A DNA stretch of 41,028 bases from contig NZ_QGGI01000021.1 in assembly GCF_003148465.1 (NCBI RefSeq), forward strand, positions 1 to 41,028, read 5' to 3'. The notes beneath the pieces are model-generated. The model was not told the DNA's origin, did no database searches, and worked only from the letters and a program-made list of their open reading frames with translations. The stretch is from Oceanotoga teriensis (lineage in GTDB: Bacteria > Thermotogota > Thermotogae > Petrotogales > Petrotogaceae). Position numbers and translations under genes: made by a program. Of the stretch, positions 1 through 41,028 are shown piece after piece. Position 1 is the stretch's first letter. Every line of letters begins with the position of its first letter.

Positions 1-1
1 A

Positions 2-88
2 ACTGCTGAAAGTGTTAATTCTAACTCTGAAAATCTCATTAAAATATCTGAAGATTTGATTCAAAAAATTAAATTATTTAAAATATAA
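2..88 (+). CDS. Methyl-accepting chemotaxis protein, C-terminal end (5' truncated by window)
   Basis: An open frame runs from the window edge to a TAA at 86-88 and gives 28 residues, starting TAESVNSNSENLIKISEDL and ending IKLFKI. The repeated Ser/Asn/Glu-rich helix followed by a short hydrophobic-basic end (KLFKI) is typical of the last coiled-coil turns of chemoreceptors, which end with an L..lv..F-type motif. Only the tail is present, so ligand and sensor type cannot be read. A strong hairpin starts five bases after the stop, so this is the end of its transcript. The call rests on resemblance of a short fragment. Confidence 0.6.
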   Translation, partial: TAESVNSNSENLIKISEDLIQKIKLFKI

Positions 89-92
89 AAAC

Positions 93-125
93 AAAATGAG
101 AGTCGTTTTAAACGACTCTCATTTT
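93..125. terminator. Bidirectional intrinsic terminator
   Basis: A perfect 16-bp stem (93-108 with 110-125) is flanked by A on the left and T on the right. It lies between the convergent receptor tail (+) and cold-shock gene (-) and can serve both. Confidence 0.85.
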
Positions 126-36113: not shown

Positions 36114-36212
36114 ATGTATTTCGTACACGAAATATTAGTAAGCGAAATGTTAGGGAGCGAAATATATTTCAAAGGAGAATATTTATGGATGAAAAATCTA
36201 AGGGGATTTTAA
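36114..36212 (+). CDS. Leader peptide (32 codons) with a five-codon repeat, overlapping marR
   Basis: A short frame with a good ribosome binding site (GGGAGAG, 36103-36109, five bases before ATG 36114) ends at TAA 36210-36212, 25 bases inside marR in another frame. The peptide is MYFVHEILVSEMLGSEIYFK followed by twelve residues. Three CGAAAT copies (36128, 36143, 36158) with an exact 15-base period give the repeat EILVS-EMLGS-EIYFK. Translation of the leader would cross the marR ribosome binding site. In B. subtilis the heterodimeric exporter BmrCD is controlled by the leader peptide BmrB through ribosome-mediated attenuation; the position here is analogous, though the sequence is unrelated as far as I can see. 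Translation is unproven. Confidence 0.45.
   Translation: MYFVHEILVSEMLGSEIYFKGEYLWMKNLRGF
36118..36170 (+). repeat. CGAAAT direct repeats (15-bp period) with flanking inverted copies
   Basis: Three CGAAAT copies at 36128, 36143 and 36158 are preceded by the inverted copy ATTTCG (36118-36123) and followed by ATTTC (36166-36170). TATTTCG-TACA-CGAAATA is a perfect 7-bp inverted repeat and a possible MarR operator. As RNA, the inverted copies could pair with different repeats. Confidence 0.6.
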
Positions 36213-36637
36213 TTTTAAAACAGATGAAAAGGATAATGGATTTATTTCATAAAAATATGAAAAATGAATTTGAAGAAATAAATTTAACGAGACCTCAAGG
36301 GATGTTAATTGGTTATTTGTTTCAAAAAGGAGAATGTAAAATAAGTGATTTAAGTGAATATATGGAACTTTCTAATAGTACTGTTTCTGGGATAGTTGAT
36401 AGACTTGAAAAACAGAAAATAGTAGAAAGAAATAGAGATGAAAAAGATAGGAGGGTTGTAAAGGTAAGTATTACTGAAGATTTTAAGAAGAATTCTAATA
36501 CACATTACAAAAAAATAGAAGGAAGATTCTCAGAGATCTTTGAAAATGTTGAGGAAAAAGATTTGAAATTTATCTTAAAAGGATTAAAAAAATTGGAAAA
36601 GATAATTGAAATCAATACTGAGGAGAGCAAAGAATGA
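36185..36637 (+). CDS. MarR-family transcriptional regulator
   Basis: A 150-residue winged-helix regulator with the MarR pattern LTRPQGMLIGYLFQKGECKISDLSEYMELSNSTVSGIVDRLEKQKIVERNRDEKDRRVVKVSIT, including the DRR wing. It probably represses its own operon and responds to a drug-like ligand. AAAGGAG (36171-36177) precedes ATG 36185. The gene overlaps the first ABC exporter gene by four bases (ATGA), so it is the first long gene of the operon. Upstream CGAAAT repeats are the likely operator. Confidence 0.93.
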   Translation: MDEKSKGILILKQMKRIMDLFHKNMKNEFEEINLTRPQGMLIGYLFQKGECKISDLSEYMELSNSTVSGIVDRLEKQKIVERNRDEKDRRVVKVSITEDFKKNSNTHYKKIEGRFSEIFENVEEKDLKFILKGLKKLEKIIEINTEESKE

Positions 36638-38844
36638 TAAAACTATTAAAGTATTTAAAACCGTATACAGTATTTTTATTAGTTGCTATCGCATTACTTT
36701 TTGTGCAGGCTATGAGTGAACTCGCTTTACCAGATTATATGTCTAGAATAGTTAACACTGGAATTCAACAAGGAGGAATTATTGACTCTGTTCCAGAAGT
36801 TATTAGACAAAGTTCTTTTGAAAAAATCAAATTGTTTATGACTAATGAACAGAGTGAAAAAGTTATAAATAGTTATGAATTGATATCTTCTGATGATGTT
36901 GAATATCTTAAAGATTATCCAGCGTTGAAAGATGAGGATATATATTTATTGAAAGATATTGATGAAGAATTAAAAAGCGAATTGAATATAATAATAGGAA
37001 AAGCTTTTATAACTGTTTCAGGTATTCAAAAAGCAAAAACTGAAGCTAAAAATGGATTTATGGAACTCAATGGTATGAAGATCCCAGCTAATATAGATAT
37101 ATTTAATATTATTAAAACTTTACCAGAAAATCAAAGAATTAAAATGATGGAAAATGTTGATAAACAAATAGAAGCTATGGGTACAAGTATGATAAATCAA
37201 ATGGGTGTAGCTGCTGTTAAAGAAGAATATATGGCTATTGGTATTGATACTGATAAGATACAGAGTTCATATATAACTAAAACGGGGTTATATATGTTAT
37301 TAATAGCTTTTTTAAGCGCTGCAAGTACTGTGATGGTTGGACTTTTAGCAGCAAGAATAGGTGCTGGTTCGGCAAGAGACATAAGAAGAGATGTTTTTAC
37401 AAAAGTAGAGAATTTTTCTAATTCTGAATTTGTAAAATTTTCAACAGCATCACTTATTACAAGAACGACAAATGATATAACTCAGATACAATTAGTTATT
37501 GTGATGATGATAAGGATGATATTTTATGCTCCTATAATGGGTGTTGGAGGAATAATAAGAGCTTTAGACAAGAGTACATCTATGTCATGGATAATAGCTC
37601 TTGCAGTTATAATACTTCTTGGACTTATTATGATAGTATTTTCAGTTGCACTTCCTAAATTTAAAAGGATTCAAAAGCTCATAGATAAATTAAACTTAGT
37701 TACTCGTGAGAATCTTTCTGGATTGATGGTTATAAGGGCATTTAATACTCAAAACTTTGAAGAAAATAGATTTGATAAAGCCAATAAAGATGTTACAAAG
37801 ACTAATCTTTTTGTAAATAGATTGATGGTTGTTATGATGCCAGCTATGATGCTTATAATGAATGGAATAACACTTTTAATAGTTTGGGTTGGAGCACATC
37901 AGATTGCAGAATCAAGTATGCAAGTTGGAGATATGATGGCATTTATGCAATATGCTATGCAAATTATATTTTCATTTTTGATGATGTCTATTATGTTTAT
38001 TTTAATTCCAAGAGCTTCAGTATCTGCAAATCGTATACATGAAGTTTTAAAAGTTGAACCAGAGATAAAAGATATTGATAATCCTGTTCATATAGATAAA
38101 GTTGATGGAGAAATTGAATTTAAAAATGTTTGTTTCAAATTTCCTGGTGCAGAAGAAAACATGCTTAAAGATATTTCATTTATTGCAAAACCAGGTCAAA
38201 CTACAGCTATAATTGGATCTACAGGTTCCGGGAAATCAACACTTATAAATATGATACCAAGATTTTATGATGTGACTGCAGGAGAAATTCTTTTAGATGG
38301 TGTTGATATAAGAAAACTCAATCAAAAAGAGTTAAGAGATCAAATAGGTTATGTGCCTCAAAAAGGTATATTATTTAGTGGAACGATAGAATCTAATTTG
38401 AAATATGCAGATAAAAATGCATCTCATGAAGAAATTTTAAAAGCTTCAGAGATAGCCCAAGCTATGGAGTTTATAGATGAAAAAGAGGAGAAATTTCAAT
38501 CACCTATTTCACAAGGTGGATCTAATGTTTCTGGTGGTCAAAAACAAAGGCTTTCTATTGCAAGAGCTATAGTCAAAAAACCAAAAGTATATATTTTTGA
38601 TGATAGTTTTTCAGCTTTAGATTTTAAAACAGATTCTATGTTGAGAAGAAAATTAAAACAGGAAACTTCTGATAGTACTTTTATAATAGTGGCACAGCGT
38701 ATTTCTACTATAGTTAATGCAGATCAGATTCTTGTCCTTGATGAAGGAAATATAGTTGGAAAAGGGACTCATAAAGAGTTGATGGAGAGTTGTAAAACAT
38801 ATCAAGAAATAGCTTTATCCCAATTATCAAGGGAGGAATTGTAA
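36634..38844 (+). CDS. Heterodimeric ABC multidrug exporter subunit with large external domain and degenerate ATP site
   Basis: A 736-residue half-transporter: six helices and an ATPase domain. Between helices 1 and 2 an insertion of about 170 residues (45-215) would face outside, as in BmrD/LmrD. Walker A GSTGSGKS is at 528-535 and signature VSGGQ at 632-636. In the Walker B FDDSFSALD, Asp657 replaces the catalytic Glu, and Gln688 (VAQRIST) replaces the switch His. So its own ATP site is degenerate, while its intact signature completes the partner's site. It overlaps marR (ATGA) and the partner gene (TAATG). Likely role: drug or lipid export. Confidence 0.95.
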   Translation: MIKLLKYLKPYTVFLLVAIALLFVQAMSELALPDYMSRIVNTGIQQGGIIDSVPEVIRQSSFEKIKLFMTNEQSEKVINSYELISSDDVEYLKDYPALKDEDIYLLKDIDEELKSELNIIIGKAFITVSGIQKAKTEAKNGFMELNGMKIPANIDIFNIIKTLPENQRIKMMENVDKQIEAMGTSMINQMGVAAVKEEYMAIGIDTDKIQSSYITKTGLYMLLIAFLSAASTVMVGLLAARIGAGSARDIRRDVFTKVENFSNSEFVKFSTASLITRTTNDITQIQLVIVMMIRMIFYAPIMGVGGIIRALDKSTSMSWIIALAVIILLGLIMIVFSVALPKFKRIQKLIDKLNLVTRENLSGLMVIRAFNTQNFEENRFDKANKDVTKTNLFVNRLMVVMMPAMMLIMNGITLLIVWVGAHQIAESSMQVGDMMAFMQYAMQIIFSFLMMSIMFILIPRASVSANRIHEVLKVEPEIKDIDNPVHIDKVDGEIEFKNVCFKFPGAEENMLKDISFIAKPGQTTAIIGSTGSGKSTLINMIPRFYDVTAGEILLDGVDIRKLNQKELRDQIGYVPQKGILFSGTIESNLKYADKNASHEEILKASEIAQAMEFIDEKEEKFQSPISQGGSNVSGGQKQRLSIARAIVKKPKVYIFDDSFSALDFKTDSMLRRKLKQETSDSTFIIVAQRISTIVNADQILVLDEGNIVGKGTHKELMESCKTYQEIALSQLSREEL

Positions 38845-40697
38845 TGAGTAAAAACAAACAAAAGAGTAATAATGAAGGCTTTGGACATGGACCTGCTGTT
38901 ATGAGAGGTGGTCAAAAGGCTAAAGATTTTAAAGGAACTATGAAAAAGCTTTTAAAATATATGAGTGATTATAAAGTTTCGATTATTGTAGTTTTTATAT
39001 TTGCGATGGCAAGTGCTATATTTATGATAATAGGGCCTAAAATTCTTGGTAAAGTAACTACTAAACTTTTTGAAGGTATTATGACTAAAATAACTGGAAC
39101 TGGTAGTGGTATTGATTTTGTATATATAGGGAATATATTACTTATGCTTGCTGGAATTTATTTAATAAGTTCTATTTTTAGTTATATCCAAGGATGGGTA
39201 ATGTCTGGAGTTTCTATGGATATAAGTTATAGATTTCGTGATCAAATCTCTAAAAAAATTAATAAACTTCCGCTTAAATATTTTGATAACACAAATCAAG
39301 GTGAGGTATTATCAAGAGTTACCAATGATGTTGATACTATAAGTCAAACGCTTAATCAGAGTCTTACACAATTGATTACTTCTATAACTACTGTTGTAGG
39401 TGTTTTATTTATGATGTTTTCTATAAGTTGGCAGATGACATTAGTAGCTCTTGCAATAATTCCTATTTCTATGATTTTAATAGCTTTTGTAGTTAAATAT
39501 TCTCAAAAATATTTTAAACAACAACAAGATTATCTTGGTAATGTTAATGGACATATTGAAGAAATGTATGGTGGACATGTTGTTATGAAAGCTTTTAATG
39601 GTGAAGAGGAAAGTATAAAAGATTTTGATAAGTTTAATCAAAAACTTTATGGTGCAGCATGGAAATCACAGTTTTTATCTGGAATGATGATGCCTATAAT
39701 GAATTTTGTTGGTAATATAGGTTATGTTGGAATAAGTGTTTTAGGAGGTTGGCTTGCAGCAAAAAGAATGATCGAAGTTGGAGATATTCAAGCTTTTATA
39801 CAATATGTAAGATCTTTCACACAACCAATAGCACAGCTCGCTAATATTTCTAATATATTTCAGCAAACAGCAGCTGCGGCAGAAAGAGTTTTTGAATTTC
39901 TTGAAGAAGAAGAAGAAAGTTTGGATACTTTAAACCCAGTTAAGCCTGAAACTATAGAAGGAAATGTTGAATTTAAAAATGTACATTTTGGATATGATTC
40001 AGATAAAATAATAATAAATAATTTTTCTGCAAATATTAAGGCTGGTCAAAAAATAGCTATAGTAGGTCCTACTGGTGCAGGTAAGACTACTATGGTGAAG
40101 TTGTTGATGCGTTTTTATGATATAAATAGTGGAGAAATTTTGATAGATAATAATAATATAAAAGATTTTACAAGAAAAGATTTGAGATCTTATTTTGGAA
40201 TGGTTCTACAAGATACATGGCTTTATAATGCATCTATAAAAGATAATATAAGATATGGTAATTTGAATGCAACTGATGAAGAAGTTTATGAGGCATCTAA
40301 AGCTGCTCATGTCGATGGCTTTGTTCATGCTTTACCAGATGGATATGATATGGTTTTAAATGAAGAAGCTTCAAATATATCTCAAGGACAAAAACAGTTG
40401 ATAACAATTGCAAGGGCTATACTTGCAAATCCAAAAATATTGATACTTGATGAAGCGACAAGTTCTGTAGATACCAGAACAGAAGTTCAAATACAAAAAG
40501 CTATGATAAATCTCATGAAGAATAGAACTAGTTTTATAATTGCTCATAGGCTTTCTACTATAAGAGATGCAGATTTAATTCTTGTAATGAATCATGGTGA
40601 TATTGTTGAACAGGGAAATCATAAAGAACTTCTTGAAAGAGATGGTTTTTATGCAGATCTTTATAAGAGTCAGTTTGAAGCACCAGTAGAAGGATAA
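38844..40697 (+). CDS. Heterodimeric ABC multidrug exporter subunit with catalytic ATP site
   Basis: A 617-residue half-transporter, partner of the preceding gene. The N-terminal GFGHGPAVMRGGQKAKDFKGT is the Gly-rich extension seen in YheH/TM288-like proteins. Six helices precede the ATPase domain. Walker A GPTGAGKT is at 408-415, catalytic Glu537 in ILDEATSSVD, and switch His568 in IAHRLST are intact. Its signature is altered to ISQGQ (512-516). With the altered residues of the partner this gives one degenerate and one working site, as in TM287/288 and BmrCD. The start overlaps the partner's stop by one base. Confidence 0.95.
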   Translation: MSKNKQKSNNEGFGHGPAVMRGGQKAKDFKGTMKKLLKYMSDYKVSIIVVFIFAMASAIFMIIGPKILGKVTTKLFEGIMTKITGTGSGIDFVYIGNILLMLAGIYLISSIFSYIQGWVMSGVSMDISYRFRDQISKKINKLPLKYFDNTNQGEVLSRVTNDVDTISQTLNQSLTQLITSITTVVGVLFMMFSISWQMTLVALAIIPISMILIAFVVKYSQKYFKQQQDYLGNVNGHIEEMYGGHVVMKAFNGEEESIKDFDKFNQKLYGAAWKSQFLSGMMMPIMNFVGNIGYVGISVLGGWLAAKRMIEVGDIQAFIQYVRSFTQPIAQLANISNIFQQTAAAAERVFEFLEEEEESLDTLNPVKPETIEGNVEFKNVHFGYDSDKIIINNFSANIKAGQKIAIVGPTGAGKTTMVKLLMRFYDINSGEILIDNNNIKDFTRKDLRSYFGMVLQDTWLYNASIKDNIRYGNLNATDEEVYEASKAAHVDGFVHALPDGYDMVLNEEASNISQGQKQLITIARAILANPKILILDEATSSVDTRTEVQIQKAMINLMKNRTSFIIAHRLSTIRDADLILVMNHGDIVEQGNHKELLERDGFYADLYKSQFEAPVEG

Positions 40698-40742: not shown

Positions 40743-40763
40743 TCTTTTAAATGAATATATTTT

Positions 40764-40812
40764 AGGTGATGGAGTTCGCCTTTAACCGCAATTAAAATGC
40801 TAATGACTCCTG
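40764..40812 (+). promoter_or_regulatory. Fluoride riboswitch (crcB motif) aptamer
   Basis: The sequence has the full crcB-motif order: AGGTG/CGCCT stem (40764-40768 with 40777-40781) closing the loop ATGGAGTT, then AACCGC, a GCA/TGC stem, and GCTAATGACTCCT. The loop GGAGT can pair with ACTCC (40806-40810) to form the diagnostic pseudoknot that encloses fluoride. These are the conserved positions of the fluoride riboswitch, as in the Thermotoga petrophila structure. Known members turn on fluoride exporters (CrcB/Fluc or CLC-F). No exporter follows here; the next gene is an IS110-type transposase. Confidence 0.9.
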
Positions 40813-40840
40813 TCTATATTTAAATGGACAGGAGTTTTTT
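40806..40840 (+). terminator. Terminator (expression platform) of the fluoride riboswitch
   Basis: A 9-bp stem ACTCCTGTC/GACAGGAGT (40806-40814 with 40827-40835) is followed by six T. Its 5' arm contains the pseudoknot strand ACTCC, so fluoride binding would prevent the terminator: an ON switch. Confidence 0.88.
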
Positions 40841-40874
40841 CATTTAAGGAGCATTCCTGAAATAAAAAAAGAAA

Positions 40875-40948
40875 GAGGTTGAAAAAAAAGGAACCTCCCC
40901 GTAAAATAAAAGTGTAACAAGAATCCATCAAATATTTTACAAAGGAGG
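40875..40948 (+). other. Structured leader of the IS110 transposase
   Basis: Hairpin A pairs GAGGTT (40875-40880) with AACCTC (40892-40897). A longer structure pairs CCTCC (40894-40898) with GGAGG (40944-40948) and GTAAAATA (40901-40908) with TATTTTAC (40933-40940), leaving a 24-base loop. The second hides the transposase ribosome binding site and excludes hairpin A. In IS110 elements this region also encodes the bridge RNA. Confidence 0.45.
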
Positions 40949-40955
40949 AACCTAA

Positions 40956-41028
40956 ATGAATTATACACAAAATAATAAAATAAAACAAGTGGATGAAAAA
41001 ACATTAGTAGTGGGAGTAGATATAGCAA
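40956..41028 (+). CDS. IS110-family transposase, N-terminal end (3' truncated by window)
   Basis: ATG 40956 follows AAAGGAGGA (40941-40949) at a good distance and opens a frame of 24 codons to the window end: MNYTQNNKIKQVDEKTLVVG then VDIA. VVGVDIA is the opening of the RuvC-like DEDD domain of IS110 transposases, where the Asp is the first catalytic residue. IS110 enzymes recombine by a bridge-RNA-guided mechanism. The assignment rests on this one motif plus the setting, so it is good but not certain; another RNase H-fold protein is the alternative. Confidence 0.7.
   Translation, partial: MNYTQNNKIKQVDEKTLVVGVDIA

What the first reader, a model, noticed from the sequence alone, without database searches (positions are those of the whole stretch)
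40764..41028. Fluoride riboswitch cut off from its exporter by an IS110-type element
A complete crcB-motif aptamer and its terminator are intact, yet the gene that follows is an IS110-family transposase in the same direction. AAGGAG at 40846-40851 looks like the ribosome binding site of a lost or displaced gene. If the element inserted here, fluoride would switch on transcription into the transposase, and the exporter beyond the element would depend on read-through. Fluoride-responsive transposition would be new to my knowledge.
Basis: partly seen in the sequence, partly recalled or inferred. Interest (0 to 1): 0.75.

Follow-up and report, generated by a model that had tools for sequence, protein, structure and literature searches.

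The report
Jumping gene docked in ribosome-binding site
An IS110-family jumping gene has landed inside the ribosome-binding site of a fluoride-controlled ion transporter; it belongs to a lineage that seeks out such sites, probably with a guide RNA, rebuilds them for the gene it displaces, and probably keeps its own enzyme untranslated when outside promoters read into it.

Summary
In detail: a full fluoride riboswitch (40756-40819, 52.5 bits), its terminator, then the left end of an IS110-family element in the same direction. The contig ends inside the element.

The element has 11 left ends and 10 right ends at contig ends of this genome. One right end runs straight into a Na+/H+ antiporter, the gene that follows the riboswitch directly in two relatives. 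No crcB or CLC gene was found in the genome.

AAGGAG at 40846 is the antiporter's own Shine-Dalgarno sequence, split by the insertion. All 10 right ends rebuild GGAG 7-10 nt before a start codon, and 15 of 18 relatives do the same, always co-oriented with the gene. A bridge-RNA-like region in relatives carries a guide that copies the left target better than shuffled pairs do (p = 0.0008); side clades have other guides and other targets.

Against fluoride-driven transposition: the left end carries an anti-Shine-Dalgarno arm between the element's own -35 and -10. Only read-through RNA contains it, and it pairs with the transposase ribosome-binding site, conserved by covariation (p = 0.00005). 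IS900 is a precedent for targeting translation starts.

Not shown: the interior of this copy (absent from the assembly), and any expression or transposition.

The parts
36185..36637 (+). Regulator gene of MarR type (by recall of the sequence type), first of the run upstream of the riboswitch
   Evidence: 150-aa ORF; family name not tested
36634..38844 (+). ABC exporter subunit (by recall)
   Evidence: 736-aa ORF
38844..40697 (+). Second ABC exporter subunit; its relative precedes the same riboswitch in G011
   Evidence: 617-aa ORF; 58% identical over 422 aa to the gene upstream of the riboswitch in L008
40756..40819 (+). Fluoride riboswitch aptamer (crcB motif, RF01734)
   Evidence: cmscan 52.5 bits, full length; only copy in the genome
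40805..40836 (+). Intrinsic terminator overlapping the aptamer 3' end, followed by a T-run
   Evidence: 13-pair stem, loop 6, T tail
40846..40851 (+). AAGGAG: left half of the antiporter's original Shine-Dalgarno; 40848-40851 GGAG is the part present at both element ends
   Evidence: 11 left ends and 10 right ends compared
40852..41028 (+). Left end of the IS110-family element (CATTCCTG...), cut by the contig end
   Evidence: 11 near-identical copies at contig ends; 86% identical to the element in G001
40879..40907 (+). Transposase promoter: TTGAAA, 17 nt, TAAAAT
   Evidence: same layout with 17-18 nt spacer in 25 of 28 left ends
40889..40908 (+). 5' arm of the shield helix: AGG, CCTCC (anti-Shine-Dalgarno) and GTAAAATA; upstream of the expected start of the element's own transcript
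   Evidence: fold -18.2 kcal/mol; covariation across relatives
40933..40953 (+). 3' arm of the shield helix, containing the transposase Shine-Dalgarno GGAGG (40944-40948)
   Evidence: weakly structured when the 5' arm is absent (-4.4 kcal/mol)
40956..41028 (+). Start of the transposase gene (24 codons present)
   Evidence: full-length relative P0002 with PF01548 and PF02371

Best explanation
An IS110-family element with an IS1111-like layout has inserted into the Shine-Dalgarno sequence of a riboswitch-controlled Na+/H+ antiporter. The site was ...CATTTAAGGAG|GAAAGTTTATGGCA...; the element now lies between the two parts, and its right end supplies GGAG again, so the antiporter keeps a ribosome-binding site. 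Target choice is probably made by a bridge RNA encoded after the transposase gene, whose left guide copies the left target and the GGAG. Insertion is in the sense of the target gene, so the element sits in mRNA 5' regions and is exposed to host transcription. Its left end carries a matching safeguard: an anti-Shine-Dalgarno arm between its own -35 and -10, present only in read-through RNA, pairs with the transposase ribosome-binding site and should keep the transposase untranslated. Fluoride should therefore lengthen transcripts into the element and perhaps to the antiporter, without raising transposase much; the element's own promoter may give the antiporter some fluoride-independent expression. 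Shown by sequence: ends, sites, orientation, synteny, covariation. Inferred: bridge RNA action, translation block, expression.
For: Eleven left ends and ten right ends of one element at contig ends. All 10 right ends: GGAG then a start codon 7-10 nt later opening an ORF of at least 60 aa, against 5.6% of random positions and 11 of 47 AGGAG sites in the window. Right end on C19 leads into the antiporter, 79% and 61% identical to the gene directly after the riboswitch in G004 and G011. Relatives: 15 of 18 right ends open an ORF of 90 aa or more 5-13 nt after the core. Left guide matches left target 54 of 92 against 41.8 for shuffled pairs, p 0.0008. The enclosing helices covary: GTCGG/CCGAC, GCTGG/CCAGC, GCCGG/CCGGC, and 7 of 9 pairs of a second helix. 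Shield arms pair at -16.0 kcal/mol within an element against -10.1 swapped, p 0.00005.
Against: The interior of this element (transposase body, bridge RNA) is absent from the assembly, so guide and transposase are read from relatives, the nearest being G001. The join C21 to C19 is by synteny, not by a read across it. For the window copy the short shield arms alone pair only moderately (-12.4 kcal/mol; 9 of 24 foreign arms pair better), although the full left end folds with the Shine-Dalgarno closed (z -1.9). The covariation tests treat related sequences as independent. Not all relatives target Shine-Dalgarno sites: Bacillaceae plasmid copies have GGGCAG and Paenibacillus copies CTAAA.
Confidence: 0.8

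Rival explanations
1. One reading: fluoride opens the terminator, transcription enters the transposase gene, and transposition of this copy becomes fluoride-responsive.
For: Riboswitch and terminator are intact and face the transposase gene with no other terminator seen up to the contig end. Read-through RNA would also contain the guide-RNA region.
Against: The left end carries a conserved anti-Shine-Dalgarno arm that only read-through RNA contains. Ten other copies lie next to unrelated genes. In ISPpu9 (IS110 family) a 5' UTR structure burying the ribosome-binding site was shown to lower transposase translation (PMC8450116).
Confidence: 0.1
2. The element recognises only a short AGGAG-like motif; its place at ribosome-binding sites reflects loss of insertions inside genes, not a preference for translation starts as such.
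For: The guide in relatives covers about 7-8 nt; AGGAG is itself the Shine-Dalgarno motif; survivors of selection are all that can be seen.
Against: 10 of 10 right ends at starts against 11 of 47 AGGAG motifs in the window that precede an ORF (binomial about 5e-7). Selection could still account for this, and the motif-guided mechanism is the same in both readings.
Confidence: 0.3
3. The antiporter on C19 is not the gene beyond this copy; C21 joins another right end.
For: The join is not in the assembly; ten right ends are candidates.
Against: Riboswitch-antiporter adjacency in G004 and G011, with a related ABC gene upstream in G011. Where the other nine products can be recognised by eye they look like MutS, a permease, an aldolase and others that do not usually follow this riboswitch.
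Confidence: 0.06
4. The riboswitch-element junction is a chimeric contig end.
For: The contig stops inside a multi-copy repeat.
Against: The element's left boundary is identical at 11 sites, and a complete genome (G001) has an intact copy with the same ends and the same kind of site.
Confidence: 0.02

Closest known systems
IS900 of Mycobacterium avium subsp. paratuberculosis (IS110 family)
   Same: IS110-family element whose target motif CATGN6TCTCCTT (PMC8141618) contains a Shine-Dalgarno and start codon on one strand; the title of Doran et al. 1997, cited there, says it targets translation initiation signals.
   Different: By my reading of the motif the IS900 transposase faces against the target gene and the element separates Shine-Dalgarno from start codon to serve its hed frame. 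Here the element faces with the gene, cuts within the Shine-Dalgarno and rebuilds it for the host gene.
IS1111-group and IS110-group elements with bridge RNA / seekRNA (IS621, ISEc11, ISEc21)
   Same: DEDD-type transposase family; a structured non-coding region with loops matching the target; a long right end with the RNA after the transposase gene, as in IS1111 (PMC11208160, PMC11187229).
   Different: Guide and target are the Shine-Dalgarno sequence. Clear subterminal inverted repeats were not found. RNA function untested.
ISPpu9 (IS110 family) 5' UTR control
   Same: The transposase mRNA folds so that the ribosome-binding site is buried (PMC8450116).
   Different: In ISPpu9 the element's own transcript is the one controlled, with two small RNAs. 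Here the blocking arm lies upstream of the element's own expected start, so only read-through RNA would be blocked.
Fluoride riboswitch controlling Na+/H+ antiporters
   Same: Riboswitch class RF01734; Na+/H+ antiporters are the next-most common genes it controls after exporters (PMC11139923).
   Different: An IS element now lies between switch and gene.

Membership tests
Fluoride riboswitch (RF01734) | Covariance-model score above the gathering threshold over the full model | tested here: met
   52.5 bits against 34, positions 1-64 of 64
Fluoride riboswitch (RF01734) | Expression platform (terminator overlapping the aptamer) | tested here: met
   Stem 40805-40836 with T-run
Fluoride riboswitch (RF01734) | Fluoride binding | not testable with these tools
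   -
IS110 family | DEDD_Tnp_IS110 and Transposase_20 domains | tested here: inconclusive
   Only 24 aa in this genome; own-genome searches with both domains gave none. The close relative in G001 has both and matches IS621 and ISCro4 chains
IS110 family | No terminal inverted repeats and no target duplication beyond a short shared core | tested here: met
   Ends differ; shared core GGAG only
IS1111 group | Right non-coding end longer than left, RNA element after the transposase gene | tested here: met
   G001 copy: left 113 nt, right 396 nt; structured region in the right end
IS1111 group | Subterminal inverted repeats of 7-17 bp | tested here: inconclusive
   None seen by eye; no systematic search made
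Bridge-RNA-guided element | RNA loop sequence matches the target and follows it between elements | tested here: met
   p 0.0008 in relatives; CTAAA guides with CTAAA targets in Paenibacillus. In this genome not testable: interior missing
Bridge-RNA-guided element | RNA is made and needed for recombination | not testable with these tools
   -
Fluoride exporter gene (Fluc or CLC-F) after the riboswitch | PF02537 or PF00654 protein | tested here: not met
   No match in the genome; the gene is Na_H_Exchanger-like, its G011 relative hitting PF00999

The most novel reading that the evidence does not exclude
A guide-RNA-directed transposon lineage uses the Shine-Dalgarno sequence as a near-universal address: it can insert before almost any gene, in one orientation, without abolishing that gene's translation, and it has evolved a built-in anti-Shine-Dalgarno shield so that the host transcription it thereby invites does not switch on its transposase.
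Probability: 0.55. Interest if true: 0.75.

Novelty: new variant of a known kind. Interest (0 to 1): 0.62.

Why it matters
It ties three things together in a testable way: a guide RNA that reads a translation signal in DNA, an insertion that rebuilds that signal for the displaced gene, and an RNA shield against the transcription that such a site guarantees. It suggests how an element can multiply in a compact genome at low cost to the genes it lands on. Programmable IS110 recombinases are of wide current interest, and a natural lineage aimed at ribosome-binding sites, with side clades aimed elsewhere, is a useful series for learning how guides are changed. For the host, the insertion gives a defined case of a riboswitch separated from its gene by about 1.8 kb of mobile DNA (length taken from the G001 copy).

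Tried and rejected
Exact-pattern scan of genome contigs with the left end found nothing. Plasmid DNA search at distant similarity found nothing. Rfam has no model that hits the complete element of G001. Transposase domains in the own genome: none, because the interior is missing. The idea that all relatives target Shine-Dalgarno sites failed an extra test on plasmid copies: Sporomusa fits, but six of the other eight end in GCAG before the left end (mostly GGGCAG), and two had no readable left end; a tree places the GGGCAG copies inside the Shine-Dalgarno-targeting ones (FastTree, midpoint root, a rough result). RNAalifold on the guide region found only the second helix; the first was read from the alignment. 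Paper searches for IS110 with Shine-Dalgarno targets found only the IS900 lead; ISfinder is not held.

Full report
WHAT IS THERE. The window is the whole of contig C21 of a 2.79-Mb draft genome of 45 contigs. At 40756-40819 lies a complete fluoride riboswitch aptamer (RF01734, 52.5 bits, gathering score 34), the only one in the genome, with a terminator at 40805-40836. Then AAGGAG (40846-40851), CATTCCTG from 40852, a promoter TTGAAA-17-TAAAAT (40879-40907) and an ATG at 40956 opening a frame that runs off the contig after 24 codons.

THE ELEMENT. A search of the own genome with 40820-41028 found ten more copies of the left end, all at contig ends and all stopping at the same base as the window. 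Comparing the contig ends showed ten ends that share another sequence, TAACTACTACC...TTTTATAGAGGGAG. Left and right ends are of one element: in relative G001, a complete genome, the same left end (86% identical) and right end (82%) bracket an intact copy. That copy encodes a 429-aa transposase with PF01548 and PF02371, scoring 221.7 bits on the NCBIfam IS110 model and matching the solved IS621 and ISCro4 transposases. Its left non-coding end has 113 nt, its right one 396 nt, the layout that PMC11208160 gives for the IS1111 group. The interior of the element is not in the G000 assembly.

WHERE IT SITS. In all ten right ends the element's last bases GGAG are followed 7-10 nt later by ATG or TTG opening a frame of at least 60 aa; ten near-identical right ends lead into ten different genes. 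In the window 5.6% of random positions and 11 of 47 AGGAG motifs have such a start, so ten of ten has a chance of about 3e-13 or 5e-7. The bases before the left GGAG are TA in ten copies and AA in the window copy. Read together, the element inserts in the Shine-Dalgarno sequence (T/A)AGGAG(G), in the direction of the gene, and both parts keep GGAG.

THE DISPLACED GENE. The right end on contig C19 runs into a 391-aa antiporter with a start 8 nt after GGAG. It is 79% identical to the gene that directly follows the riboswitch in G004 and 61% to that in G011; the G011 protein hits PF00999. In G011 the gene before the riboswitch is 58% identical to the window's ABC gene 38844-40697, so the window's order ABC gene - riboswitch - antiporter is the uninterrupted order there. 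The genome has no CrcB and no CLC family gene. A review states that Na+/H+ antiporters are the next-most common class after exporters under this riboswitch (PMC11139923). The join C21-element-C19 is inferred, not read.

IS THE SITE CHOICE A PROPERTY OF THE LINEAGE? A scan of genome contigs with the G001 transposase gave 65 loci in Halanaerobium, Clostridium, Lachnospiraceae, Acetivibrio, Caloranaerobacter, Paenibacillus and others. Most outside Paenibacillus have GGAG directly before CATTCCTG. Of 18 right ends that could be read, 15 open an ORF of 90 aa or more 5-13 nt after the core, one a 42-aa and one a 9-aa frame, one none (boundaries chosen by eye). Paenibacillus copies instead have CTAAA before the left end. 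Nine annotated plasmid copies were then fetched as a further check: Sporomusa fits the Shine-Dalgarno pattern; six Bacillaceae copies end in GCAG, mostly GGGCAG; two could not be read. A rough tree puts the GGGCAG copies within the Shine-Dalgarno-targeting ones. So the property belongs to a large part of the lineage, not to all of it.

A GUIDE. After the transposase gene the relatives share a structured region. Helices enclosing it change in step: GTCGG/CCGAC, GCTGG/CCAGC, GCCGG/CCGGC, GTCAG/CTGAC, and a second helix has changes on both sides in 7 of 9 pairs. One loop reads, for example, GTCGAGGAG in the Halanaerobium copy whose left target is ATCGAGGAG, GTAAAGGAG where the target is TTAAAGGAG, GTATAGGAG where it is GTATAGGAG, and CGCTAAA or AGCTAAA in Paenibacillus where it is GCTAAA. 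Among 23 distinct Shine-Dalgarno-type pairs, bases 5 to 8 from the 3' end of the target match in 54 of 92 cells against 41.8 for shuffled pairs (p 0.0008). This is the pattern expected of a bridge RNA or seekRNA left guide (PMC11208160, PMC11187229). A right guide was not identified. For this genome the prediction is a guide ending (T)TAGGAG.

A SHIELD AGAINST READ-THROUGH. The left end has a promoter with a 17-18 nt spacer in 25 of 28 relatives compared. The spacer contains an arm complementary to the transposase's ribosome-binding site, for example ATACCTCCCTGAT with ATCAGGGAGGTAT in Halanaerobium. Within an element the two arms pair at -16.0 kcal/mol on average, with swapped partners at -10.1 (p 0.00005). 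In the window the left end folds with GGAGG closed (-18.2 kcal/mol, z -1.9), and the riboswitch-to-transposase RNA keeps that helix; RNA from the element's own expected start lacks the arm and folds weakly (-4.4). For the window copy the short arms pair only moderately and nine foreign arms do better, so the case rests on the family. ISPpu9, an IS110-family element, gives experimental precedent for a 5' UTR that buries the transposase ribosome-binding site (PMC8450116).

HOW IT MOST LIKELY WORKS. Fluoride opens the riboswitch terminator; polymerase enters the element; the read-through RNA hides the transposase start, so transposase output stays low. No intrinsic terminator was found on the sense strand of the G001 copy, so some RNA may reach the antiporter, whose ribosome-binding site is intact; untranslated RNA over 1.3 kb may on the other hand favour Rho-dependent loss (general knowledge). 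The element's own promoter could add fluoride-independent antiporter expression. None of this is measured.

NOVELTY. IS110-family elements, their guide RNAs and the riboswitch are known, and IS900 is a known case of an IS110 element at translation starts (PMC8141618 and its citation of Doran et al. 1997). What appears new in the papers I could search is the combination: a guide that copies the Shine-Dalgarno, a co-oriented insertion that rebuilds it, and a read-through shield. I could not consult ISfinder, and most subscription papers are not held.

Noticed in passing
G000 contig ends C7_s, C7_e, C18_s, C37_e, C16_s, C17_s, C6_e, C36_e, C15_s, C32_e, C2_e (L236-L246): A second, unrelated repeat (end ...AGAAAGATACTA) lies 14-17 nt before a GGAGG and a start codon at all 11 places; on C2 the far side looks like the start of another transposase facing away. 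A second mobile element that docks just upstream of Shine-Dalgarno sites; mechanism and family not determined.
   Followed up: partly
L248-L253, L255 (Bacillaceae plasmids): Relatives of the element with GGGCAG before the left end and often TTGAAGA just after the right end: a retargeted side clade.
   Followed up: partly
L178, L181-L183, L186, L194 (Paenibacillus): Relatives with CTAAA as left target and as guide loop; what their target sites have in common is unknown.
   Followed up: partly
window 1-95 and G000:C19:1-95: The first 95 bases of the window are shared with the start of C19, so the two contigs that flank the element also share their far ends.
   Followed up: no
L003-L007, L009-L013 (relatives of the same class or order): In several of these loci the fluoride riboswitch precedes genes of an uncharacterised protein with CPIC-type cysteine motifs, often followed by a MoxR-like ATPase gene.
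   Followed up: no
L024, L030 (same family): Fluoride riboswitch directly before an enolase-like gene.
   Followed up: no
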